Below, in pieces: positions 2,017 through 21,789 of a DNA stretch of 27,766 nt. The first letter of the stretch is position 1; every line of letters starts with the position of its first letter. The notes beneath the pieces were generated by a model, which was given only the letters and a program-made list of their open reading frames with translations, searched no databases and was not told the origin of the DNA. Origin of the DNA: a virus. Location: IMG/VR virus record IMGVR_UViG_3300025174_000091, positions 1 through 27,766 of that record; one strand, given 5' to 3'. Position numbers and translations under genes: made by a program.

Positions 2017-2631
2017 TTAGATGTCGATGTACGCTGAAGCGCCAAACCGGATCCACCGACACACCCAGTCCGACGGTTTCCGGCGCAATATTAGGGCTTT
2101 CACTCCCGTTACCTCTTCCGCCGTGATGTTCGAGATTCCGCATCGCATGACTCCGCACACGGCTCCGGATGACCCGATCGTGGTAGGCGGACCATACTCA
2201 TGGCTACCATCCGGCACCACAAGCCAGAACTGCGACTCCCACGGGTATGGCTCCATCGTGCTCCACGGGGCTCCGCTGAAGGGCGTGTAGATGACCACCC
2301 CAGTGAAACCGAAGGCCTCAAGCTCAGCCGTGAGCACTGCCTCGGACCCAGCGTTCCGGTAGATGGCTCGCCAGATCGACAGCCGGGCACGGTGTTGGCC
2401 GTCGGATTCACCGGGGTAGCGTGGCATCCTGCGTTCAGTGGCCAGGCGCCCCCGCGCGTCCTGCGGCTGCTCCGGGTTATGGGTCCAGACCGCCATCGCC
2501 CCGAGCAAACACGCCTCCCCCATCGCGTCGCCGATGAGCCCAAAGCACTCGACAAAGCGACGCCCATAGTCGCCGCCGGCCCACGGCAACCGGCCGAATA
2601 TGAACCGGGCGACATCGCGGAACGAGATCAT
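2017..2631 (-). CDS. Tail protein I-like / Mu gp48-like baseplate protein
   Basis: The ATG at 2631 forms an ATGA overlap with the stop of the baseplate J gene, giving a 204-residue product (MISFRDVARFIFGRLPW). The upstream in-frame start at 2649 is less likely. The segment RRMPRYPGESDGQHRARLSIWRAIYRNAGS matches the pattern of tail proteins that follow J in Mu- and P2-like clusters: an arginine-rich strand, then PGESD, then a helical arm. The rest is Trp- and Gly-rich (PYPWESQFWLVVPDG). In known phages this protein (P2 gpI, Mu gp48) sits at the outer baseplate rim and links J to the fibres. The order W-J-I-fibre here supports that role. The family call rests on synteny plus the motif. Confidence 0.7.
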   Translation of the reverse strand: MISFRDVARFIFGRLPWAGGDYGRRFVECFGLIGDAMGEACLLGAMAVWTHNPEQPQDARGRLATERRMPRYPGESDGQHRARLSIWRAIYRNAGSEAVLTAELEAFGFTGVVIYTPFSGAPWSTMEPYPWESQFWLVVPDGSHEYGPPTTIGSSGAVCGVMRCGISNITAEEVTGVKALILRRKPSDWVCRWIRFGASAYIDI

Positions 2632-3803
2632 CCCGTGACCTGCGTCCACGTGAGGACGAGCGGTTCGCCGAGCAACGCTACCTCGAATGTCCCCAGGGTC
2701 GTCTCACCACCGGTCAACGCGACGCCCACCACGCCGGTGGCTGACCTGATAGCGGCCGTGAGACCGTCCTCTGGGATGATGTTGGACGGGCCGGGACTGA
2801 GGTTGAACCCGCCGATCGGGGCTGTATTGACGTAATCGCGAAGTGCGTTCAGTACGGCCGTCTGTACCGCGCTCAGATCCCCCGTGTAGTACACCGTGCC
2901 AGTCGGGGCTACCTGATGCGTGAGTGCGGCCGCAACCAGCACTCTGCCGGCTCCGAACGCGCTGGCATCAACTGCATCCTGCACGTCCTGCCGCTCGTCG
3001 GACGTAGCTTGCTCACTCGCCGCCGCAACCCACACGTCGACCGTAAACGGACCTCGCGGGTTGCTGGAATCCACCCTCACGCGCGCATTCGCGAGCGCTG
3101 TCCGAGCGATCCACTCGTACCGGTCGTCGATGGTCTCCAGCACGGACATCGTCCCGACGCTGGCGGAGTTCCGCTCCCGCAGAGCCGCGTCGCTCTCATC
3201 GTTGGAGCCGTTGGTGGTGATCCAGGTGCTGGTGGCGCCGAAGGCTGGATTGGAGCACGTGACGCCGGCATACGTGGTCACCATCGTCTTGATGGTGTCG
3301 TTGGCAACGTCGTTGCTGTCTTCCCCAGGGACTTCGGCGGCGATCTCAGCGTCGATGTATCCGCCTTGCGGGATGACGAACGGGCCTACAGTGCGTACAC
3401 CTGCTAGGTAGTAGTACCCAGTAGTCCTAAACGTGCGCGTCCCGTCGGAGACGACGATATCGCCTGCGTTGATGGTGTACGGCGGCCCAACGGCCCCGCC
3501 CGTGAAGCGCTCGACCCCAATGGTCGATTTCGCCTCGATGCGCTCGTTCCCCCAGTTCTCGCGCGAGTAGTGTGTTAGCCCAGTGTCCGTCGCGTCAGCG
3601 TTGAAGTGGATGCGCGAGAGAGCATCCGCGAACGGCTGGATGATGGTGACGAACTTGGCCAATGCCCTCAGTACGGTTGCGCGGATGACTCCGGTCTGCC
3701 ATGCACCCAGCTCGAACCCGGCGGACTCCAATACCTCGAGGATGTCGGTGAGCGCCTCCTCCTCGGTGTACGCAGCACGTATCTGCTCTAATGTCAGCAT
3801 CAT
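2628..3803 (-). CDS. Baseplate wedge protein J-like
   Basis: A 391-residue protein of usual J length, starting at ATG in an ATGA overlap with the W-like gene. It has the features of the P2 gpJ / Mu gp47 family: a helical N-terminus with HFNADATDTGLTHYSREN, a beta-rich middle with GGYIDAEIAAEVPGEDSNDVAND (the conserved acidic A-x-x-PG-x-x-x-N element), then the DESDAALRERN segment typical of J, and a C-terminal alpha/beta domain with repeated AV-rich helices. In contractile tails two J-like arms clamp around the hub and connect to the sheath and I. The ATGA coupling to W and I fits stoichiometric production of the wedge. Confidence is high because motif, length and synteny agree. Confidence 0.88.
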   Translation of the reverse strand: MMLTLEQIRAAYTEEEALTDILEVLESAGFELGAWQTGVIRATVLRALAKFVTIIQPFADALSRIHFNADATDTGLTHYSRENWGNERIEAKSTIGVERFTGGAVGPPYTINAGDIVVSDGTRTFRTTGYYYLAGVRTVGPFVIPQGGYIDAEIAAEVPGEDSNDVANDTIKTMVTTYAGVTCSNPAFGATSTWITTNGSNDESDAALRERNSASVGTMSVLETIDDRYEWIARTALANARVRVDSSNPRGPFTVDVWVAAASEQATSDERQDVQDAVDASAFGAGRVLVAAALTHQVAPTGTVYYTGDLSAVQTAVLNALRDYVNTAPIGGFNLSPGPSNIIPEDGLTAAIRSATGVVGVALTGGETTLGTFEVALLGEPLVLTWTQVTG

Positions 3804-6466: not shown

Positions 6467-7083
6467 GGTGCAGCGCTCCCCGGCGGCGCAGTCCCAGCAA
6501 TGATGTCATCCACGTTCTTGGGCTGGTTGCCGCTTGGATTATCGAAGATCGAGTACTCGCGCACCTGGCCGGGCGGGTACGTCGGACCGGTGCTCGGCTT
6601 CGGTTTCGGAGCATCCGGTGGGGCGATGAGCCACTCGGCGCATGAGATGGTGACTTTCACCACCCCGTTCTCCGGGTCCCCAACGTCAATGCCCTTGAGG
6701 TACACTTCGGTGATCCCGCAAACGGCCGTCTTGGGGTGGTCGATCTTCACGGGGGAGCGCTTGCCGCCCCTTTTGCGGGCCCAGAGCTTTGGAAGGACGT
6801 CCTGAAAGAACTGCCACTCAACGGGCGTCGCCAACTCGAGGACGATGGTGACCGGAGTGATCTCCTCGCCGTTGTCTGTGATGGTCCCGCCACACTTCCC
6901 CTTGGCCTTCTTTTCCTCGACAGCGCGCTTGAGCGGACAGCTGACCTTGGCTCGACCAGGGAGCTGCAGGTCACCGAGGAAGACCGTGTCCCAGAAGTCC
7001 GGGCCAAGGTTTCTGTCATCTTCCCAGTGTGGCTGGTAGGAGGCAGCCTTGCCCCAGTCTGGCTGGTCAAGGGTATTGGCCAT
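6460..7083 (-). CDS. Tail protein between tape measure and hub
   Basis: A 207-residue protein whose ATG overlaps the tape-measure stop by one base (TGATG). Residues ~25-135 look like a compact alpha/beta or beta domain (VSCPLKRAVEEKKAKGKCGG, PVTIVLELATPVEWQFFQDV, KTAVCGITEVYLKGIDVG), followed by CAEW. The C-terminal ~60 residues are a Pro/Gly-rich tail, probably flexible. In Mu- and P2-like maps this slot holds the tail-tube initiator or LysM-like connector joining tube, tape measure and hub. I see no clear LysM motif, so only the position supports that role. Confidence 0.6.
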   Translation of the reverse strand: MANTLDQPDWGKAASYQPHWEDDRNLGPDFWDTVFLGDLQLPGRAKVSCPLKRAVEEKKAKGKCGGTITDNGEEITPVTIVLELATPVEWQFFQDVLPKLWARKRGGKRSPVKIDHPKTAVCGITEVYLKGIDVGDPENGVVKVTISCAEWLIAPPDAPKPKPSTGPTYPPGQVREYSIFDNPSGNQPKNVDDIIAGTAPPGSAAPW

Positions 7084-9287
7084 CAGGTCCCCTCAGCGAG
7101 GGCTTGGCCCTCCCACCACGACTGCACCAGGCCGAGGACGCGACGGGCAAACGCGTCGCCATCCTCACCGGACTGCTGGATGATGTTGAAGTTGGCCTGG
7201 AATGTCTTGCCTGCGCCCCCGCCTTCAGCGCCACCGCGCAAGACCAGCGCTCCGCCCTTGGGTACCACCCATTCGCCCTCTCCGACTACGCCTCCCCCGG
7301 GGCCCACAGGTCCCCCTGCCGCATGGGTCTCGGCAAGCTTCATGTACTCCACATCGACGCCACCGGTTGTGCGCACCGACTCGGAAACACCGGCGCCAGT
7401 GGAGGCAGCGGCCGCTCCTCCGGCGGCCACTGGGGTCCCGCTTACCTTCGGCACCGGTATATTGACGAATGGGATTCGGTTGAGCTCGGTGATGACGGTC
7501 GCGATCGCGTCAATCGCCACTGCTTTGAGCGTGGCCCACGCCTTTGCGGCTGCGCTCTCGAAGCTACCCCACAGATCGATCGCCCACTGGACCGCCTCTA
7601 CCAGGACGTAGATCACCCCGGCAACCGCTGCGATGAACGGAGACAGCAGAGTGAAGAACCCTATAGCTGCAACAATGAAGGCAATCAGACCACACCCGAC
7701 GATGGCAGCGAGTGCGATCCCGACCCACTTCAGAACGGACATCAGAGTCTCGTTCTGCGCTACCCAAGCCGAGACCGCTGCCGCAGTCGCCCCGACCCAT
7801 GCCACGAACCTCCCGAGGTCAATGGTGGCCTTCCCGATCGTCGTGCCGAAGTCCTTGATCTGCTTCAGTACGGCCGGGTCTTTCAGAGCGTCGAGCGGGT
7901 TCTTCTGCTTGGCAAGCCGGTCGAATTCTGTTCCCAGCGTGCCGGTAAACCCGTCCACGAACGCGAGCGCTGCTCCCAAGGCCGCGTGCATTGATTCGAC
8001 CAGGAACCCGAAATACGTCGCCCCACGCTTGGCCCATTCGGTGAAAGCATCCGAGTTGAGCCATGCAGAAATGCCGTCCATGACGGGCTTCAGGCGCTTG
8101 AACGCTGGCTCTGCGAGCTCCGCGATCTTCAGCAGGGCTTGCGACCAAGACGACTTCAGCTGCGCCAAAGATCCCGCAACGGTGGTGGAGAGCCAGCGAA
8201 TGCGTGCCCCTCCAGCCTCCGCGGATCCCGTCATGGCGATAATGGCCGCCTCGATTCCACGGAGGGCCACGTCGGCCGTGACCTTCCCCTCCTCCTTGAG
8301 CTTCATAGCCTGCTGGACACTGACCCCCATCTCCTTGGAGATGTTCTGCCAGATGAGGTCGAGGTTCAGGCCGGTTTCCTGGAGCTGACGCAGCTCGTCT
8401 CCCTGGAGCTTTCCAGCTCCCTTGATCTGGCTCATGGCCAGGACCACACGGCTCATCGTCTCGCTGGTGACCCCAATCGCACTGAGGTCCTGCATCCGCG
8501 CGAACCACCGGAATGCATCGTCGCCTTTGAACCCCGCGGCGGTTAGAGCCCGAATACCCTCGGTCGCATCCTCTATCGGGACGGCGAGATCCGACGCGCT
8601 CTTTTTGATCCGCTCGAACGTCTCGACGCCCTTCCCTCCGGCCAGGGCATTGAAGGTCGCGATGGCGTTCTCTTTGACCATCGCCATCTGCCCCACTGCC
8701 TTGGCAAAAGCCACCGAGACCGCGACACCCACGGCGGCGACGGCCGCCGCTGCCATGGCAGCATACTTCGCGACGGTAAGCAGGGCGCCTCCGACTGCCG
8801 TGACGACCCCGACCACTGGCCCTCCGAGCACCGCGAGCTCTGACCAGGAGGTCTTGACCACGCCGAAGGACTCAGCGAACGATTCCCCTGCCACTTTGCG
8901 AGTGGCGTCGTCCTGGGCAGAGCCCAGGAGCTTTACTGACTGGGCCATCCCCGACAGGCCCGCGCGGAACCGACCCAGTGCACCCAGGGCGGTGTTCGCT
9001 CGCGCCAAGCCCATCCAGTCGCCGAGCCCCCCGGCTCGCTGGAACGCTACGGCCTGCCGTGCAGCGCGACCCGCCGCGCTCATGCGCTCGATTTCCCGGC
9101 GCGCACTCTCCGCTTGCTCAGCTGCCACGACGCCCCATTGCCTGCTCCAGGCCGCATTCACCGCTTGCGAGGAAGCCACGGTGGCCGTTGCTGCGTGCTG
9201 CAGCCCCTGCATGGACGCGGTCGCAGCCGCGGCCGGGCCGCTCACCTTGTTGATGAGCGCAACGGTGAAACTGACAATGTCGGCCAT
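7083..9287 (-). CDS. Tail tape measure protein
   Basis: At 734 residues it is the longest tail protein. Residues ~1-150 are Ala-rich helix with coiled-coil character (VAAEQAESARREIERMSAAG). Residues ~153-199 are strongly hydrophobic. Residues ~205-395 match the tape-measure N-terminal domain pattern, including KLQGDELRQLQETGLN and a second element ending ALRGIEAA. A second hydrophobic block covers ~521-575. The C-terminus is Gly-rich with GEGEWVVPKGG, a pattern common at tape-measure ends. The protein fixes tail length and probably enters the host membrane with the DNA. By the usual ~1.5 angstrom per residue rule the tail would be near 110 nm. The start is ATG without a good ribosome binding site, just after a strong hairpin. 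Confidence 0.92.
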   Translation of the reverse strand: MADIVSFTVALINKVSGPAAAATASMQGLQHAATATVASSQAVNAAWSRQWGVVAAEQAESARREIERMSAAGRAARQAVAFQRAGGLGDWMGLARANTALGALGRFRAGLSGMAQSVKLLGSAQDDATRKVAGESFAESFGVVKTSWSELAVLGGPVVGVVTAVGGALLTVAKYAAMAAAAVAAVGVAVSVAFAKAVGQMAMVKENAIATFNALAGGKGVETFERIKKSASDLAVPIEDATEGIRALTAAGFKGDDAFRWFARMQDLSAIGVTSETMSRVVLAMSQIKGAGKLQGDELRQLQETGLNLDLIWQNISKEMGVSVQQAMKLKEEGKVTADVALRGIEAAIIAMTGSAEAGGARIRWLSTTVAGSLAQLKSSWSQALLKIAELAEPAFKRLKPVMDGISAWLNSDAFTEWAKRGATYFGFLVESMHAALGAALAFVDGFTGTLGTEFDRLAKQKNPLDALKDPAVLKQIKDFGTTIGKATIDLGRFVAWVGATAAAVSAWVAQNETLMSVLKWVGIALAAIVGCGLIAFIVAAIGFFTLLSPFIAAVAGVIYVLVEAVQWAIDLWGSFESAAAKAWATLKAVAIDAIATVITELNRIPFVNIPVPKVSGTPVAAGGAAAASTGAGVSESVRTTGGVDVEYMKLAETHAAGGPVGPGGGVVGEGEWVVPKGGALVLRGGAEGGGAGKTFQANFNIIQQSGEDGDAFARRVLGLVQSWWEGQALAEGT

Positions 9288-10408: not shown

Positions 10409-11848
10409 TCACACGTTCAGGGCGAAGCCCATCTTGGTGGTGATGAACTCGGAGTAGCCGAGCGGACGGATGGCAACCTCCGTGAGCAACTGCTTCGTCA
10501 GGTTGATGTTGTTGGTGGTGTCGATGGTGTAGCGGACCGCCGACACATGGCCCTTGACTCCCTCGGCGTTGTACTGGTCGATCAGCACCGCATTGAGTGC
10601 GTCCTGCACCTTCTGCTGGGCGGGTCCAGCGTCGCGCTTGTCTATAGTCCCGGCCGAGGTAGTCCGGAAACTCCGGTTTTGGAACCCGGCCTGAAGCTGG
10701 TACGTGACCCTCCGAGCCGTGTTGAAGACCCGTACCTTGTGCCAGTCGCCAAAGTCCGACCCAAACGGAGGCTTGATGCGGCCACCAGTCAGGTAGTATC
10801 CCTGCAAGCCGTAGAAGCTCCGAATCGTGGTGATCCCGAGCTGGTCGAGGAGGTCGGCTTCGTTTTCGTCGTGGCTGAGGGGTGCCGGGAAGTCCGTGGT
10901 GGGTCCGGGGATGCCGGACAGCGTGCCCGATGCGACCCGTCCGAGGTGCGTCGAGATGAGCTCGGACGTCGCCCTGACCGCCGCGTGAGTCAGCGTGAGG
11001 TGGCGCGGCGTGGAGCAGCCGACGATTGGGACGGCCGATACCGTGTCCGCGTAGCCGTAGCACGGCATCAGCCAGCGGTCGGTTTGCGTGTAGCCGGACG
11101 CAACGTTCGTCGCCGTATCGGCGCTGGCGACGTCGAACAGGGCCGAGACGAACTTGTACTTGCTGTGCCAGGCCGCGAGATGCCCAGCGAGTGCACCTGC
11201 GATGGTGCCGGCCGCGGCAACCGTCGCGTGGACGCCGGAAAGCACCAGGAAGTCCCAGTAGAACGGACTTGTGTTGATGCCCGTCACCGCCGCGCTGAGC
11301 TCGGTCGTCGTGTAGACCGGAGCCGTCGCCACGCCAGTATAGACGTCTGCAGCGACGTACGCTCCAGCAGCGAAGGTGAGATTGAGTCCGGTGTTGGGAA
11401 TCGTGTAACTGCCACCGGCGGGCGTCAAGATCTCCGGTGAGAACGTGCGCCCGTCATCGAGGGAGTACTTGAACCGTGAGGTCCCGAGGGCACCAGCTTT
11501 GGTGATGACGATGCGCAGCTCGTGCCAGTAGTAGGGGGTCGAGCTGTTGTTCGTGATGTCGGGCCCGCTGCCGCTCTTGGCTAGTGTTGCGGTCAGGCTC
11601 CCCGCGGAAGACTGCGCGATCTTGGTGAAACGGACTGGGCCGCCTGACTTCTGCAGGATCGCGGCCGCGTCCTCGACAGCAGGCCCGTAGCCGTTTTCCG
11701 ACTGGAGAGTGTTGAGCGATGAGTAGGTCTTGGTTGTCGCAGCCGTACCGCCCGAGCAGATTCCAGCGACGTGCGGCACGTTGAAGGCGGGGCTAACTCC
11801 GCCTAGCCCGGGGTCAACGACCGTGAAGGTCTGGCCTGGGAGGGTCAC
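10409..11848 (-). CDS. Contractile tail sheath protein with inserted Ig-like domain
   Basis: A 479-residue protein starting at GTG in a GTGA overlap with the upstream gene; AAGGA lies nine bases upstream. The N-terminus has GLGGVSPAFNVPHVAGICSG, the usual sheath opening strand. The C-terminal half has the sheath core: ADLLDQLGITTIRSF, GGRIKPPFGSDFGDWHKVRV with NTARRVTYQL, and a final domain ending EFITTKMGFALNV. Residues ~91-175 are a beta-sandwich module (SRFKYSLDDGRTFSPEI, TGLNLTFAAGAYVAADVY) that is also found in the capsid and DUF1320 proteins of this phage. The protein forms the contractile outer tube, which makes this a myovirus-type tail. It is longer than P2 FI (~396 residues), as expected with the insertion. 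Confidence 0.9.
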   Translation of the reverse strand: MTLPGQTFTVVDPGLGGVSPAFNVPHVAGICSGGTAATTKTYSSLNTLQSENGYGPAVEDAAAILQKSGGPVRFTKIAQSSAGSLTATLAKSGSGPDITNNSSTPYYWHELRIVITKAGALGTSRFKYSLDDGRTFSPEILTPAGGSYTIPNTGLNLTFAAGAYVAADVYTGVATAPVYTTTELSAAVTGINTSPFYWDFLVLSGVHATVAAAGTIAGALAGHLAAWHSKYKFVSALFDVASADTATNVASGYTQTDRWLMPCYGYADTVSAVPIVGCSTPRHLTLTHAAVRATSELISTHLGRVASGTLSGIPGPTTDFPAPLSHDENEADLLDQLGITTIRSFYGLQGYYLTGGRIKPPFGSDFGDWHKVRVFNTARRVTYQLQAGFQNRSFRTTSAGTIDKRDAGPAQQKVQDALNAVLIDQYNAEGVKGHVSAVRYTIDTTNNINLTKQLLTEVAIRPLGYSEFITTKMGFALNV

Positions 11849-16617: not shown

Positions 16618-16704
16618 TGGTTTGGTGGGTTTGGGCGGGAACTACCGCCGGGTGTATTTCTGGTTTGGTGGGTTTGGGCGGGAACTACCGCCGGGTGTAT
16701 TTCT
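16618..16704 (-). repeat. 43-bp tandem duplication with hairpins
   Basis: Two head-to-tail copies (16618-16660 and 16661-16704) appear identical across 43 bases. The right copy contains the last codons and TAG stop of the protease/scaffold gene (stop at 16685-16687); the left copy is a non-coding echo of that gene end. Each copy carries an inverted repeat GGCGG-6-CCGCC, so the transcript would have two tandem hairpins just before the capsid ribosome binding site. There is no U-run. The duplication may set RNA stability or separate scaffold from capsid expression. Confidence 0.85.
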
Positions 16705-17215
16705 CGTGGTCTGCTCGCATCGCCTCGAACAGGTCCGGGGACTCGCGAGAGAGCTGGTCCTTCTCCATGTTGGAGAGCTCGGCGTATGGCTTTCCGTTCC
16801 ACGTCAGCGCTACGGAACCCTTGCCGCGGTTGAAGTCTGGCGGGTTGATGGGCGTGGTCGGAACTTTCGGCGCTGCCACAGGTACCCATGCGCGCAAGAC
16901 CTCTACGCTCATTGAGGCCGCCCAGGTCTCTTCCGCGGCCGTCGTGATCTTGCGTTCACGCTTCGCCTGGGCGATCAGGTCACGCTTCTCGCGCTCGATG
17001 TCAGCGGCGACTCTCCCGGAGAGCTCCTGCTCTACTGCGGGCAGTCGTTCGGCTGCCTGCTTCCAGGCCAAGAGCTTGCCCTCGATATCGGCCGGGGTAG
17101 CGCCGGCGATCTCGAAGATGCGCACGAGAATGGTACTGTGGGTGTTGAGCGCCTCGACCGCGGTGACGGCGGAGGCCTCATCGGTGGCGCCGAGTTTTGC
17201 GAATAGGATGTGCAT
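16685..17215 (-). CDS. Internal in-frame scaffold product of the protease gene
   Basis: An ATG at 17213-17215 (Met276 of the protease protein) is preceded by AAGGAAAG, with seven bases between AAGGA and the ATG. It lies right after the Ala/Pro-rich linker (DAAAAAQRPAAAKESP) that ends the protease domain. The product would be 176 residues: MHILFAKLGATDEA, a helical body with REKRDLIAQAKRERKITTAA, and a C-terminal capsid-contact-like region. Mu (gpI/gpZ) and lambda (C/Nu3) use exactly this nested arrangement to make free scaffold from the protease gene. Confidence 0.7.
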   Translation of the reverse strand: MHILFAKLGATDEASAVTAVEALNTHSTILVRIFEIAGATPADIEGKLLAWKQAAERLPAVEQELSGRVAADIEREKRDLIAQAKRERKITTAAEETWAASMSVEVLRAWVPVAAPKVPTTPINPPDFNRGKGSVALTWNGKPYAELSNMEKDQLSRESPDLFEAMRADHEKYTRR

Positions 17216-18040
17216 TGGACTTTCCTTGGCCGCTGCGGGCCGTTGCGCCGCGGCTGCGGCATCGGTGGATGGGTCCTCGGCGATGCCAGGTGCCGGCGTT
17301 TCTCCGGCGAAGCAGGCTGCGATCTGCCGAGCGTCCGAGTGCGGGTACATGAGAGCGAAGGCGGACGGCGCAAGCGGAGGCTTGACCGACTTGGCTGGGA
17401 TGACCCGGTCAGCAAAGCCCTGCTCCACGGCCTGCTTCGCCGTAAGCCAGGTGTCACGGCTCATCATGGCGTCCACCTGCTCGGCGGTCTTCCCGGTCCG
17501 GGCAATGTAGATCTCTCGGAGCGCTTCGGAGGCCACCTGCAACGCCACGATGGCATCCTCGTGCGCGCGAATGCCACCACGGGTGATCGTGGCCACGCCG
17601 TGGACCATCATGACCGAGGATGCCGGCATGAGGATCTCGTCCCCGGCCATGGCCACGGCCGAAGCTGCGGAGGCAGCCACCGCATCGATGATGCATGTCT
17701 TCTTGGCGGAACGCTGGACGAGCATCTGGTATATGGCGATGCCCTCGAACACCGACCCGCCAGGCGAGTTGATGTGCACCTCGATCTCGGCAACGTTCTG
17801 ATTTTCGTCGAGCCAGCGCTTCACCGCGGAGGAAGACACGACATCATCGAACCAGTCGCACGAATCGATTGGGCCGTAGAGGTAGAGGATACCTTTGGTA
17901 CCCTGGACCTCGGCTCGGAATCCGCGCACAGACTCTCCAACGTTTGGGATCGCTGCCCAGGGAGCGGCGCTCGCGCCTGTGAGCACGTAGAACTTTGCCA
18001 GCTTTCCGGACAGCTCCGGCGAGAACGGTTTTCGTGCCAT
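16685..18040 (-). CDS. ClpP/S14-fold head maturation protease fused to scaffold
   Basis: A 451-residue protein with an AGAGGAACA ribosome binding site. Residues ~45-220 are the ClpP-type serine protease domain: HINSPGGSVFEG (residues 89-100) gives the oxyanion loop, the nucleophile is probably Ser124 in DAVAASAASAVAMAG, and His147 lies in MMVHGVAT; the third residue is likely an Asp near 160-190. Residues ~250-275 are an Ala/Pro linker, and residues ~276-451 are the scaffold. The enzyme would cut scaffold and itself during prohead maturation. Position before the capsid gene and the nested scaffold start match Mu gpI/gpZ. Confidence is high. Confidence 0.92.
   Translation of the reverse strand: MARKPFSPELSGKLAKFYVLTGASAAPWAAIPNVGESVRGFRAEVQGTKGILYLYGPIDSCDWFDDVVSSSAVKRWLDENQNVAEIEVHINSPGGSVFEGIAIYQMLVQRSAKKTCIIDAVAASAASAVAMAGDEILMPASSVMMVHGVATITRGGIRAHEDAIVALQVASEALREIYIARTGKTAEQVDAMMSRDTWLTAKQAVEQGFADRVIPAKSVKPPLAPSAFALMYPHSDARQIAACFAGETPAPGIAEDPSTDAAAAAQRPAAAKESPMHILFAKLGATDEASAVTAVEALNTHSTILVRIFEIAGATPADIEGKLLAWKQAAERLPAVEQELSGRVAADIEREKRDLIAQAKRERKITTAAEETWAASMSVEVLRAWVPVAAPKVPTTPINPPDFNRGKGSVALTWNGKPYAELSNMEKDQLSRESPDLFEAMRADHEKYTRR
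17225..17229 (-). promoter_or_regulatory. Internal ribosome binding site for scaffold
   Basis: Minus-strand AAGGA inside the protease coding frame (codons for Lys-Glu), seven bases before the in-frame ATG at 17215. A site this good exactly at the domain boundary argues for a functional internal start. Confidence 0.65.
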
Positions 18041-18190: not shown

Positions 18191-18493
18191 TCAGTACACG
18201 GCGTCGGGGTCGTGCCGTGATAGATCCCGTTGGTCCACCAACGGATGCGCGATCTCTGGGGCCTCGACCACCGTAACGCCCCAGATGGGGGCCTTGTACC
18301 TGAGCCATGCATCAATGGCGGCCGCACTGTCCAACAGAAGCACACCTTGCGAATCCGGCTGCGGACCAAGAGGGAACCTCGTCGGCTCAATCTGGGTCAG
18401 TCCGAATCCGTAGCGCACCTTCTCAGCGACGTCGGAGCTCCCGGTTACCTTGCCACCGAGTTCGATCATTGTGCCATCTGAGAAGCGCCACAT
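18191..18493 (-). CDS. Hypothetical protein downstream of the portal fusion
   Basis: The ATG at 18493 gives 100 residues (MWRFSDGTMIELGGKVTGSS); a TTG at 18499, overlapping the upstream stop as TTGA, would add two residues. No clear ribosome binding site is present. The protein has an N-terminal beta hairpin, a middle with RFPLGPQPDSQGVLLLDS, a helix AAAIDAWLRYKAP and a C-terminal EIAHPLVDQRDLSRHDPDAVY. No known domain is recognised. Because MuF toxins of temperate phages are commonly followed by an immunity gene, this could be a partner of the peptidase domain upstream; that is speculation. It may equally be an ordinary small virion protein. Confidence 0.62.
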   Translation of the reverse strand: MWRFSDGTMIELGGKVTGSSDVAEKVRYGFGLTQIEPTRFPLGPQPDSQGVLLLDSAAAIDAWLRYKAPIWGVTVVEAPEIAHPLVDQRDLSRHDPDAVY

Positions 18494-18495
18494 GG

Positions 18496-21400
18496 TCAAA
18501 GTCTACCGGACAGACAGCCGAGTAGCAAGTATAGGTGCTCCGGGTCGTCGACCAGCAATTGTGCCGCATCGCCGGTAATCACCCACTGCATCGCCATTGA
18601 CAGCACCTCCGTGTGCTCCTCCCGGTAGTCCTTCCCGACATAAGGATCGAAGAACTTATCGGGCCGTGTCATCTCGCTGTCGCGGTACGCCGCGTCGAAC
18701 TCGGCGAGGTTCCGCAATGCCTCGCCTCTGGTCCTGGCACGCAGGAACGCCACGCAGGCGCGGTGGACGCGTGGATTGAGGTACTCGAAGGCGTGGGCCA
18801 GCTCGTGCTCGAGCTCTCCGTTGGCCGGCGACGACCGGACCATCCGCTGCGGACCGCGCATCTCCCCACGGAGCCATCCAAGTTCTGCATGCCAACCACG
18901 CGGCGCATCGATGGAGCGGTCGGCCATGCGGACTAGGAACGCCTCAGCATCTGAGGCCGCCCTGCGAGGATCGCCTGGCCATCTGCCATCTGGGTTCTCG
19001 ACCGTTAGTCCCAAAGGATCACCCGGCCTGACCCTTGCGCAATGTCCGGCTACCGCTGCCGATGCACGCACGGCATCATGTTCTGGCGAGGCCAGCAACT
19101 TCAGTTGTCTTACGGTGAGGCCGGGTCTCTCCTTCCCGAGCCTGTCCAGAAGGTCTGCACGAGCCTCGAACCGAGGCCCCAGCATCCTCAGCCGCTCGGC
19201 CACCTCGGCTGGCTGCATGTCGAGCCCGCGCTCGAGGGCAACCCTGCCGTGGGCCAGTGCCCGGGCGGCGTCTTCGTCGTACCTGCGCTCGTCCCGGTAG
19301 TGCGCGAGCCAGTGTTCTGGGTCGTACTTCGCCGGCAGCTTCCGGGTGAGTGGATCGGCAGGAGGTGGCTTCGGCACGTCCGCGAGCTTCTCTCGGGTCA
19401 CCTTGGCTAGCTCGGGGTCGCGCCCGGATAGGTCTGGCTCCCACTCGGGAAGCCGAACGCCGGGCGCAGCGCCGAACCCCTTTTGGGCCTCGGCGCTGGG
19501 TGGTGCCACCAGCACGCCCTTCGCGCGTGCCTGCTCGGCATCCAGCGTCGTGACTCTGTCCCTGCATGCGTAATGCAGCGGAGGATAGTGCGTCGACCAG
19601 AACGGGTCGCTTGCTGGCAGGATCACCTTGGGGCTGACGAACTCGCGGCAGATGTCACTGGTCCGCTCGTCGTCCACCACTACCAGATACCAGTATGGCC
19701 GGAGGGCAAGGATATCTGGGTCTACCTGCTGCGCGTACCTACCGGCGTTCAGCGCCGCCTGGGTATTCGTGCGCCAGATGGTCTCGAGACGCCACGCTAT
19801 GTGGTCTGGCGTCCGTGGCCCACCTCCGAGCTCCCAGGCCTCAGCCAGCTTGTCCCGCTGCTGGTCGCGCCACTCCTCGAAGCGCTTCTGCTCCTGCTCG
19901 GCTTTGACCAGGCTGTCGTGGATCTCGCTGATGAGGTCCAGGTTCGTGACGTTGGCTACCGTGAAGGCTCGCGTCCTCGCAGCCGCATCGAGCAGGTCGA
20001 AGTCCGCTCTGGTAAGGTTGGTCTTCCTGCGGAGTAGGTCGATTGCCTTCTGCCAGCGACCGGCTTCCTTGCCGATCTTTGGCCAGTTCGCCACCTGCTC
20101 GATGGCCTCGAGTTCGCTGGCTCTCCCGGCGATCTGGAGCAGCGTCAGGGGCTCGTGCAGCGTCTTGGCGAGCTCCGCCGCGTCCATTCTGCCGAGGCGT
20201 CGAATCAGGTTGTCCCGGAGGATTGTCCAGGTGCCTGCTCTACGGATATCCTCGAGCAGCTGGGCAACGTCCTCACGGAGGACTTCGGTTGCCTCCTGCG
20301 CCGCCTCTCGGTTGACGGTGTCGGTCCAGTCCTGGACGCTTACCCCGTGCCGGTCGGCGTCGGACTCGCTTGCAGCGCGAAGGTCTATTTCGGTGGAGCC
20401 GACCAGCTCAATCAGCGCTTTTGGGCGCGGCGCTCCGTTCTTGGAGGGCTCAGGCGGTGGAGGCTTCCCCCGCTGCTCGTCCTCCTCCGCAGGAGGCGGG
20501 GTAGGATTCCCGGGCGGCGGTGCAGGGGGCTCGGGTTCCTCGAGCGCGGCCTTGAACTTGTAGCCCTCGACGACCGGGATGCCGAGCTCTTTGAACTCAA
20601 CCTCCCAATCAACCGGGCTGGGCAGCCCAGCATCTGTAAACCGCTTCTCGAGCGCTAGCAGCGGCGGTATGGCCTGTGACAGCGTGCTCGCCCACTTCAC
20701 CGTGTCCTTGGGCGGCTCGACCATCCATCGTGGCCACGGGGCGAGCTCGGCTGACCCGAAGTTGACCTCCGACCACGGCACCAGCACCTGGTCGTGGAGG
20801 ATGGTGGACCCGACCTCCGCGTCGTACCGGATGCGACGCGCCTCGACCTCGCTTGAGGTCTGAGACGCAGCGAAGCTCCCGCCTCGAATCTCGGTCGTCA
20901 TGTTCTGACCGAGCACGCCAACGGCGTAGGCGAGGTTCGCGCAGTCGATCTGGGCCTGGTAGATGTCCCTGGTGTTCGCCGTAAGCTCAATGAGCTTCGC
21001 CGTCACGCCACCAGGCAGGGCCACGATCTGGCCCGAGCCAGCGTTCTCGATGTCGTCCGCCAGTTCCTTGCGGACCTGCTTGCTGATCTCGACCTCAGCC
21101 GATAAGCCCTCGATGAAGATGCGTGCAGCCGTCTCCGAGTGCCGACCCCAATCGTCGATGGCCAGCGACTTGAGTAGCCGAAACCGACTGACCCCGCGCC
21201 AGAGCCCGAATCGCCAGGGAGCCTCGTTGCCAAATGGGCAGTAGAGCACCCATCGTCGATCTCCTGGCTCAATCTGGATCTCGGAAGTGGGCCCGCCACC
21301 ATTCCCACCGACCGTGAGCATCCACCTGGCGATCGAGTAGTCGTAGCGCAGCCACCGCGGGTGCCACCATCGCAGGGTCGGGACGATTCGGCTGTTCTTG

Positions 21401-21789
21401 TCCGACCAGGGGAAGAGCTCCCCGAGTCCCACACCGAGCCCGAGGCCCCAGACCATCAGCATCAGAAGCGAGGCCTCGGGGAGCATGTCCCACCAGTCCT
21501 CCTGGGCCTCGAGGGCACGGAGCACTCGCTTGGCGATGCGTGCTCGCTTGGCGCCGTCCTCGAATTCGATGGGAGCCCCGAGGAGCGACCCGACGCGCGT
21601 TTCGAAAACGCCTCGACAGCGTTCGTCCGTTAGGACCCAGTCGAAACAATCGGCGGCAGCCCGAAGAGATCCCCCATCCGCGGAAAGCTCAGCAGCCCGG
21701 ATGAGCGCTGGGGTCCACCGGGTGGCGATGCGCGTGCTCGGCTGCGCGTAGACCTGGTCGTCTTTGACTGCGCGCTTTCGTGCTGCCAA
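18496..21789 (-). CDS. Portal (DUF935) + MuF head protein + metallopeptidase-like fusion
   Basis: A 1097-residue protein starting at TTG 21789, nine bases after the terminase stop, with AGGG upstream. Residues ~1-415 match the DUF935 / Mu gp29 portal: IDDWGRHSETAARIFIEGLS, then GQNMTTEIRGGSFAASQTSS and EVEARRIRYDAE. Residues ~417-458 are a Pro-rich linker. Residues ~590-755 match the MuF / gp30 family: IWRTNTQAALNAGRYAQQ, then VVDDERTSDICREF and SDPFWSTHYPPLHYACRDRV. Residues ~820-1097 are an extra domain with HELAHAFEYLN (His995, Glu996, His999), TRPDKFFDPYVGKDYREE, and Glu1061 in EHTEVLSMAMQ as a possible third zinc ligand. This resembles the HExxH domains known at MuF C-termini in phages. 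Portal and MuF are usually separate genes (~500 and ~430 residues). Domain calls are strong; catalytic activity is inferred. Confidence 0.9.
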   Translation of the reverse strand: MAARKRAVKDDQVYAQPSTRIATRWTPALIRAAELSADGGSLRAAADCFDWVLTDERCRGVFETRVGSLLGAPIEFEDGAKRARIAKRVLRALEAQEDWWDMLPEASLLMLMVWGLGLGVGLGELFPWSDKNSRIVPTLRWWHPRWLRYDYSIARWMLTVGGNGGGPTSEIQIEPGDRRWVLYCPFGNEAPWRFGLWRGVSRFRLLKSLAIDDWGRHSETAARIFIEGLSAEVEISKQVRKELADDIENAGSGQIVALPGGVTAKLIELTANTRDIYQAQIDCANLAYAVGVLGQNMTTEIRGGSFAASQTSSEVEARRIRYDAEVGSTILHDQVLVPWSEVNFGSAELAPWPRWMVEPPKDTVKWASTLSQAIPPLLALEKRFTDAGLPSPVDWEVEFKELGIPVVEGYKFKAALEEPEPPAPPPGNPTPPPAEEDEQRGKPPPPEPSKNGAPRPKALIELVGSTEIDLRAASESDADRHGVSVQDWTDTVNREAAQEATEVLREDVAQLLEDIRRAGTWTILRDNLIRRLGRMDAAELAKTLHEPLTLLQIAGRASELEAIEQVANWPKIGKEAGRWQKAIDLLRRKTNLTRADFDLLDAAARTRAFTVANVTNLDLISEIHDSLVKAEQEQKRFEEWRDQQRDKLAEAWELGGGPRTPDHIAWRLETIWRTNTQAALNAGRYAQQVDPDILALRPYWYLVVVDDERTSDICREFVSPKVILPASDPFWSTHYPPLHYACRDRVTTLDAEQARAKGVLVAPPSAEAQKGFGAAPGVRLPEWEPDLSGRDPELAKVTREKLADVPKPPPADPLTRKLPAKYDPEHWLAHYRDERRYDEDAARALAHGRVALERGLDMQPAEVAERLRMLGPRFEARADLLDRLGKERPGLTVRQLKLLASPEHDAVRASAAVAGHCARVRPGDPLGLTVENPDGRWPGDPRRAASDAEAFLVRMADRSIDAPRGWHAELGWLRGEMRGPQRMVRSSPANGELEHELAHAFEYLNPRVHRACVAFLRARTRGEALRNLAEFDAAYRDSEMTRPDKFFDPYVGKDYREEHTEVLSMAMQWVITGDAAQLLVDDPEHLYLLLGCLSGRL

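What the first reader, a model, noticed from the sequence alone, without database searches (positions are those of the whole stretch)
18496..21789. Portal, MuF and zinc-metallopeptidase-like domain in a single 1097-residue protein
Mu-like phages usually encode the DUF935 portal and the MuF-type head protein as separate genes. Here they are one frame, joined by a Pro-rich linker at residues 417-458, with a further ~280 residues carrying HELAH (995-999) and a downstream Glu1061. The stretch DKFFDPYVGKDY and EVLSMAMQ resembles HExxH domains known as C-terminal extensions of MuF proteins, some regarded as polymorphic effectors of temperate phages. If translated whole, every portal subunit (normally 12) would carry a MuF and a peptidase domain, an odd stoichiometry that suggests cleavage in the prohead by the adjacent ClpP-fold protease, or injection of the peptidase into the host.
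Basis: partly seen in the sequence, partly recalled or inferred. Interest (0 to 1): 0.85.

Follow-up and report, generated by a model that had tools for sequence, protein, structure and literature searches.

The report
Portal fused to phage zinc-peptidase effector
In this phage, the ring protein through which DNA enters the head carries two extra domains, the last a probable protein-cutting enzyme; an adjacent small gene, missed at first, looks like that enzyme's inhibitor, which makes the whole a testable toxin-and-antidote system built into a virus particle.

Summary
The ORF is real: window 18496-21789, minus strand, 1097 aa, TTG start. It is a Mu-type portal (Portal_Mu), MuF domain and C-terminal HExxHxxE domain in one frame. 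Corrections: portal homology runs to residue ~568 and MuF starts at ~574, so the Pro-rich 417-458 stretch is an insert inside the portal, not the joint. Frame-shift error is unlikely: codon-position GC is continuous, and other-frame stops lie at codons 611 and 649. The last ~155 residues belong to a widespread phage family (67 members aligned), without a Pfam model, with H995, E996, H999 and E1061 invariant. Most members sit at the end of MuF proteins. Portal-MuF fusion is published in Microbacterium phages; closest relatives here use two genes.

Such a gene follows many genes of this family and often ends in -Val/Ile-Tyr (29 of 80, against 0 of 76 MuF genes lacking the domain), across proteins with otherwise unlike sequences. 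In streptococcal phages, peptidase domain and small gene occupy the slot that relatives fill with Ntox50 plus a small ORF. Best reading: virion-carried MuF-type peptidase effector plus cognate inhibitor. Activity, cleavage and injection are untested.

The parts
18496..21789 (-). portal-MuF-peptidase fusion gene, 1097 aa, TTG start
20086..21789 (-). Mu-type portal domain, residues 1-568
   Evidence: Pfam PF06074; profile of Mx4, MMP7 and Riverbug portals matches 4-568 of the stop-to-stop frame; profile A3 matches solved portals 8rka (E 4e-31) and 9khx
20416..20541 (-). Pro-rich insert inside the portal (residues 417-458), not the fusion joint
   Evidence: alignment with the Mx4 portal, which has its own insert there
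19444..20070 (-). MuF domain, residues about 574-782
   Evidence: Pfam PF04233; PHROG 220; profile match
18964..19443 (-). variable, mostly helical linker region, residues 783-942; no family match
   Evidence: AF2 low to middling confidence
18499..18963 (-). HExxH domain (called MPT here), residues 943-1097
   Evidence: PHROGs 33618, 20397, 19443, 8561; alignment A5 of 67 relatives; AF2 pLDDT above 90 from about residue 993 on
18793..18807 (-). HELAH, residues 995-999: predicted zinc site
   Evidence: invariant H, E, H in 67 relatives
18607..18609 (-). Glu1061, predicted third zinc ligand
   Evidence: invariant in 67 relatives; geometry not measured
18191..18499 (-). 102-aa gene, TTG start in a TTGA 4-nt overlap with the fusion's stop, ends ...DPDAVY: candidate inhibitor / immunity protein
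16685..18040 (-). ClpP-fold head maturation protease, 451 aa
   Evidence: Pfam PF00574, PHROG 94, NF045542
21799..23370 (-). terminase large subunit, directly upstream of the fusion
   Evidence: PHROG 2

Best explanation
A MuF-type phage effector in which the MuF gene has become fused in frame to the portal gene. The portal part forms the usual dodecamer with its C-terminal crown inside the head, so the MuF and peptidase domains hang in the head lumen (inferred). The C-terminal domain is a zincin-like peptidase of a widespread phage-specific family. The 102-aa protein made from the overlapping gene binds it and keeps it inactive in the producing cell, probably by putting its C-terminal Val-Tyr into the zinc cleft as a product mimic. 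The peptidase is freed by proteolysis in the prohead, or acts from the portal or after ejection, on a target in the next host cell. Shown: gene structure, domain homology, conserved site, linked small gene and tail, slot shared with another toxin. Inferred: activity, inhibition, release, delivery, target.
For: Portal, MuF and HExxH domain in one frame. HExxH and Glu1061 invariant over 67 relatives that are mostly 25-35% identical to the window. Most relatives are C-terminal domains of MuF proteins. Small downstream ORF ending [IVLM][YF] after 29 of 80 MPT genes against 0 of 76 MuF genes without MPT (Fisher p 2e-10). Fetching by the window's small protein gave 6 loci (5 if the two near-identical contigs L189 and L190 count once; three not seen before), all with MuF-MPT directly upstream. 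The tail is kept at protein level: every Val and Ile codon, both Tyr codons and all three stops are used, and downstream DNA is unlike. Of 97 phage records with the r1t-like MuF N-terminus, 10 have the MPT and the same 10 have the small gene; three relatives carry the toxin domain Ntox50 plus another small ORF in the same place. [quoted passage not shown] immunity proteins for the MuF toxins Bxa and Apk2 are shown (PMC11699363).
Against: No biochemical data. AF2 does not show the expected zincin sheet with confidence (residues 970-986 low) and no solved structure matches. 51 of 80 MPT genes lack a tailed small ORF under the strict test, some through contig ends or other tail types (PxGxV[ST]). 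The ten streptococcal cases are near-identical prophages, so one event. The MPT also occurs in proteins without a detected MuF domain.
Confidence: 0.58

Rival explanations
1. Self-processing peptidase: the C-terminal domain cuts the polyprotein itself (or head proteins) during assembly, separating portal from MuF or from the arm, and the small protein times this.
For: An auto-processing role is proposed for MPTase domains of polyvalent phage proteins such as P1 DdrB (PMC5512222). A fusion on every portal subunit would make such a cut useful.
Against: In most relatives portal and MuF are already separate genes, yet the peptidase domain and its small partner are present. Domain and partner are exchanged as a unit for Ntox50 plus a small ORF, which has no processing role. 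The head protease gene is present as well.
Confidence: 0.2
2. Structural or DNA-pilot role only: the C-terminal domain is a non-catalytic head-interior domain that kept a metal site, and the small protein is a minor head component or assembly chaperone.
For: MuF proteins are structural head proteins (PMC5576092); relatives are annotated minor head or structural protein.
Against: The catalytic Glu of HExxH and Glu1061 are invariant over highly diverged relatives, which a purely structural domain would not need; the module is exchanged against a toxin domain.
Confidence: 0.15
3. The single frame is an assembly or sequencing artefact that joined two genes.
For: All close relatives have two genes, and the window is one virus contig.
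Against: Continuous codon-position GC across the joint; no stop near the joint in any frame; no ATG near the expected MuF start and only a GTG at codon 566. Fusions occur independently in L127, L177, L047, L066 and in isolated Microbacterium phages.
Confidence: 0.07

Closest known systems
MuF polymorphic toxins of temperate phages (PMC5576092; Bxa and Apk2, PMC11699363)
   Same: MuF carrier, exchangeable C-terminal enzyme domain, small gene directly downstream; a metallopeptidase class was reported
   Different: carrier here is portal plus MuF in one chain; this peptidase family has no Pfam model; candidate immunity proteins share a C-terminal Val/Ile-Tyr, for which I found no report
Portal-MuF fusions of Microbacterium phages, clusters EA3, EA5, EA8 and EB (PMC7302621)
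   Same: portal and MuF-like protein in one gene in viable phages
   Different: the paper reports no peptidase domain there; whether those portals are of the Portal_Mu family was not examined here
Zincin-like MPTase domains of polyvalent proteins and portal/MuF effector fusions (PMC5512222)
   Same: HExxH peptidase on phage proteins; effector domains fused to MuF and portal domains
   Different: only 1 of 67 relatives shows even a weak match to Pfam MPTase-PolyVal; portal, MuF and effector in one chain was not found described in what I read
MuF proteins of Myxococcus phage Mx4 and Meiothermus phage MMP7
   Same: closest portal and MuF relatives; each has its own C-terminal enzyme-like domain (PF07737 in Mx4, PBECR2 in MMP7)
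   Different: separate portal gene; different C-terminal domain families

Membership tests
Portal_Mu (DUF935) portal proteins | match to PF06074 above the curated cut-off | tested here: met
   144.3 bits against 23.9
Portal_Mu (DUF935) portal proteins | full portal including the C-terminal part | tested here: met
   family profile A3 matches chain 37-518 of portal 8rka; window aligned to about 568
MuF proteins | match to PF04233 above the curated cut-off | tested here: met
   44.5 bits against 29.6
MuF polymorphic toxins | enzyme domain C-terminal to MuF that is exchanged between relatives | tested here: met
   Ntox50 and other domains in the same place in streptococcal relatives; PF07737 and PBECR2 in Mx4 and MMP7
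MuF polymorphic toxins | small immunity-like ORF directly downstream | tested here: met
   18191-18499 with 4-nt overlap; linkage tests
MuF polymorphic toxins | toxicity neutralised by the small protein | not testable with these tools
   needs expression
MuF polymorphic toxins | temperate phage | not tested
   no integrase or repressor search was made; the contig covers mainly head and tail genes
Zincin-like metallopeptidase | HExxH plus a downstream conserved Glu or His ligand | tested here: met
   H995, E996, H999, E1061 invariant in 67
Zincin-like metallopeptidase | zincin fold with a beta sheet before the HExxH helix | tested here: inconclusive
   HExxH lies on a confident helix, the preceding stretch is low confidence, no PDB fold match
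MPTase-PolyVal (PF18818) | match above the curated cut-off | tested here: not met
   no match for the window; 1 of 67 relatives at E 0.009

The most novel reading that the evidence does not exclude
A phage-specific family of zinc peptidases is held in check by small proteins of several unlike sequences that have converged on the same C-terminal plug, -Val/Ile-Tyr-COOH, inserted into the zinc cleft; in this phage the peptidase is mounted on every subunit of the portal ring and stands ready at the DNA exit.
Probability: 0.35. Interest if true: 0.78.

Novelty: new variant of a known kind. Interest (0 to 1): 0.56.

Why it matters
MuF effectors are known mainly from sequence, and the biological role of MuF toxins was still called unknown in 2024 (PMC11699363). 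This locus gives a directly testable peptidase-inhibitor pair, a predicted two-residue mechanism of inhibition, and a geometry (effector fixed to the portal) that forces the question whether MuF effectors must be cut loose before they are delivered. The peptidase family is widespread and has no Pfam model.

Tried and rejected
Full-length search for close relatives in viral contigs found none. AF2 on residues 785-1097 was too disordered for a fold search, so the core 943-1097 was modelled; no PDB match, only phage proteins in BFVD. PDB sequence search gave only the HExxH helices of unrelated proteins. PADLOC: nothing. Considered and rejected: the Pro-rich stretch as joint; an internal start for a separate MuF (only GTG566, without a clear ribosome-binding site); the tail as a by-product of DNA overlap with the next gene. 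MuF was not detected in the portal-MPT proteins L034 and L054, so these count as portal-MPT only.

Full report
1. The observation. The frame is on the minus strand, 18496-21789, 1097 aa from a TTG 9 bases after the terminase gene. Pfam finds Portal_Mu at 47-374 (E 7e-42) and Phage_Mu_F at 634-744 (E 3e-11); nothing in Pfam matches the last 284 residues even at E 10. PHROGs match residues 993-1093 to families 33618, 20397, 19443 (minor head protein) and 8561. HELAH at 995-999 and Glu1061 are as stated.

2. Where the joint is. Aligned with the portals of Myxococcus phage Mx4, Meiothermus phage MMP7 and Thermus phage Riverbug, the window's portal resumes after the Pro-rich 417-458 stretch and ends near 568; the MuF proteins of the same phages start to align near 574. 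Mx4 has an insert of its own at the Pro-rich position. A profile of these portals finds the solved portals 8rka (E 4e-31, chain 37-518 of 526) and 9khx. I take 8rka to be the phage JBD30 portal; this is from memory, because the tool output gives only the molecule name. In JBD30 the portal crown lies inside the head (PMC11445458), so a C-terminal fusion would put MuF and peptidase in the head lumen; this is inference.

3. Real fusion or error. GC by codon position keeps its pattern across the joint. The first stops in the other frames are at codons 611 and 649, whereas in relatives the two genes overlap by a few bases, e.g. 14 in MMP7 and Riverbug. There is no ATG near the joint. Fusions exist elsewhere. 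Portal_Mu with MuF: L127 and L177. The portal family PF04860 with MuF and MPT: L066, and L047 (split by intein-like insertions; L046 is a copy cut by the contig end). PF06381 portals with MPT but no detected MuF: L034 and L054. Isolated Microbacterium phages of clusters EA3, EA5, EA8 and EB have portal-MuF fusions, and cluster EA has no recognised protease gene (PMC7302621), so twelve fused MuF domains are tolerated and cleavage by a head protease is not obligatory. Among about 100 Portal_Mu ORFs looked at, this is the only one with portal, MuF and MPT in one chain.

4. The C-terminal domain. Relatives were found by tblastn in Lactococcus, Streptococcus, Flavobacterium, Bacillus, Planktothrix and Xanthomonas phages, and by a profile scan in 80 virus loci. 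In 67 aligned sequences H, E, H of HExxH, the Glu at 1061, Ser1064, Tyr1050 and Gly1052 are invariant; Tyr1050 and Gly1052 lie in the PYxGK search pattern and are biased. Most of these proteins have a MuF domain before it. Pfam has no model for it: of 67 members, 4 match Peptidase_M90 and 1 MPTase-PolyVal, all weakly. AF2 gives mean pLDDT 82, above 90 from about residue 993 to the end, with HExxH on a helix (992-1004) and E1061 just before another (1062-1071); residues 970-986 are not resolved. No PDB fold matches; BFVD matches are phage proteins, among them 'Phage head morphogenesis domain'. I had no coordinates to measure the zinc geometry.

5. The small gene. The window's next gene (18191-18499, 102 aa) overlaps the fusion's stop by 4 bases (TTGA) and ends DPDAVY. 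After other MPT genes the next ORF is commonly 70-105 aa, often with a 4-base overlap, and ends in Val/Ile-Tyr. In a fixed test (ORF of 45-140 aa starting within -40 to +120 bases) 29 of 80 MPT genes, against 0 of 76 MuF genes without MPT, have such an ORF ending [IVLM][YF]; all ORFs of this size: 1.6%. Of 50 partner candidates (60-130 aa, start within -31 to +40), 33 end that way (20 VY, 11 IY). They fall into 20 clusters by phmmer at E 0.005, 11 of which contain such an ending; of 14 singletons, 7 do. The codons for the tail vary freely. So proteins with otherwise unlike sequence share a C-terminal dipeptide. That is what a plug for an active site would look like; carboxypeptidase inhibitors of potato and leech work through their C-terminal tails (own knowledge). 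Loci are not fully independent, so the p-values overstate the case. A minority type ends PxGxV[ST] instead.

6. Two linkage tests. (a) A scan with the window's small protein and its three relatives returned 6 loci, all with MuF-MPT directly upstream and a separate portal gene; three (L186-L188) were new. (b) 97 phage records carry the MuF N-terminus of streptococcal phage 315.3; ten carry the MPT and exactly those ten carry the small gene. In three relatives with 56-72% identical MuF parts the C-terminus is Ntox50, a bacterial toxin domain, followed by a 62-65 aa ORF; in a fourth it is another domain with a DUF7675 protein. The peptidase and its partner thus move as a cassette in the toxin-immunity slot of MuF proteins. 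The ten are near-identical S. pyogenes prophages and count as one event.

7. Known context. MuF toxins: 20% of 191 have a metallopeptidase domain, and 89.4% are followed by an ORF under 150 aa against 25.5% for short MuF (PMC5576092). Bxa and Apk2 have proven immunity proteins (PMC11699363). Polyvalent-protein work describes zincin domains on phage proteins and effector fusions to MuF and portal domains (PMC5512222). New here, as far as I could find: all three domains in one Portal_Mu chain, and the shared tail of the small partners.

8. Verdict. New variant of a known kind. The fusion itself is rarer than it is strange; the small gene is the most informative part. How the peptidase leaves the portal, if it does, is open.

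Noticed in passing
L034:1972-6429: PF06381 portal followed by two repeats that look like ADP-ribosyltransferase domains (judged by eye, not tested), a coiled-coil-like stretch and the MPT; no MuF detected.
   Followed up: partly
L047:1588-6336: Portal-MuF-MPT protein with an intein and homing-endonuclease match in the portal part and a HINT match inside the MuF part.
   Followed up: partly
L066:882-6531: A portal-MuF-MPT ORF followed by a second, overlapping MuF-MPT ORF.
   Followed up: no
L007, L055, L062, L063: Planktothrix phage PaV-LD and related contigs have two or three neighbouring MPT ORFs, with the small partner gene among them.
   Followed up: no
L067, L073, L051: In MPT loci without MuF the next ORF is large (401, 1387 and 1840 aa); its N-terminus looks, by eye, like the small partner proteins.
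   Followed up: no
L002:6395-7804: The MuF protein of Myxococcus phage Mx4 has a different C-terminal HExxH domain (Pfam PF07737, E 2e-6).
   Followed up: partly
window 2628-3803, 7083-9287, 10409-11848: Baseplate wedge, tape measure and tail sheath matches: the phage probably has a contractile tail.
   Followed up: partly
window 18940-19089 (residues 901-950): GC at third codon positions drops to 0.50 just before the MPT, possibly marking where the cassette was joined.
   Followed up: no
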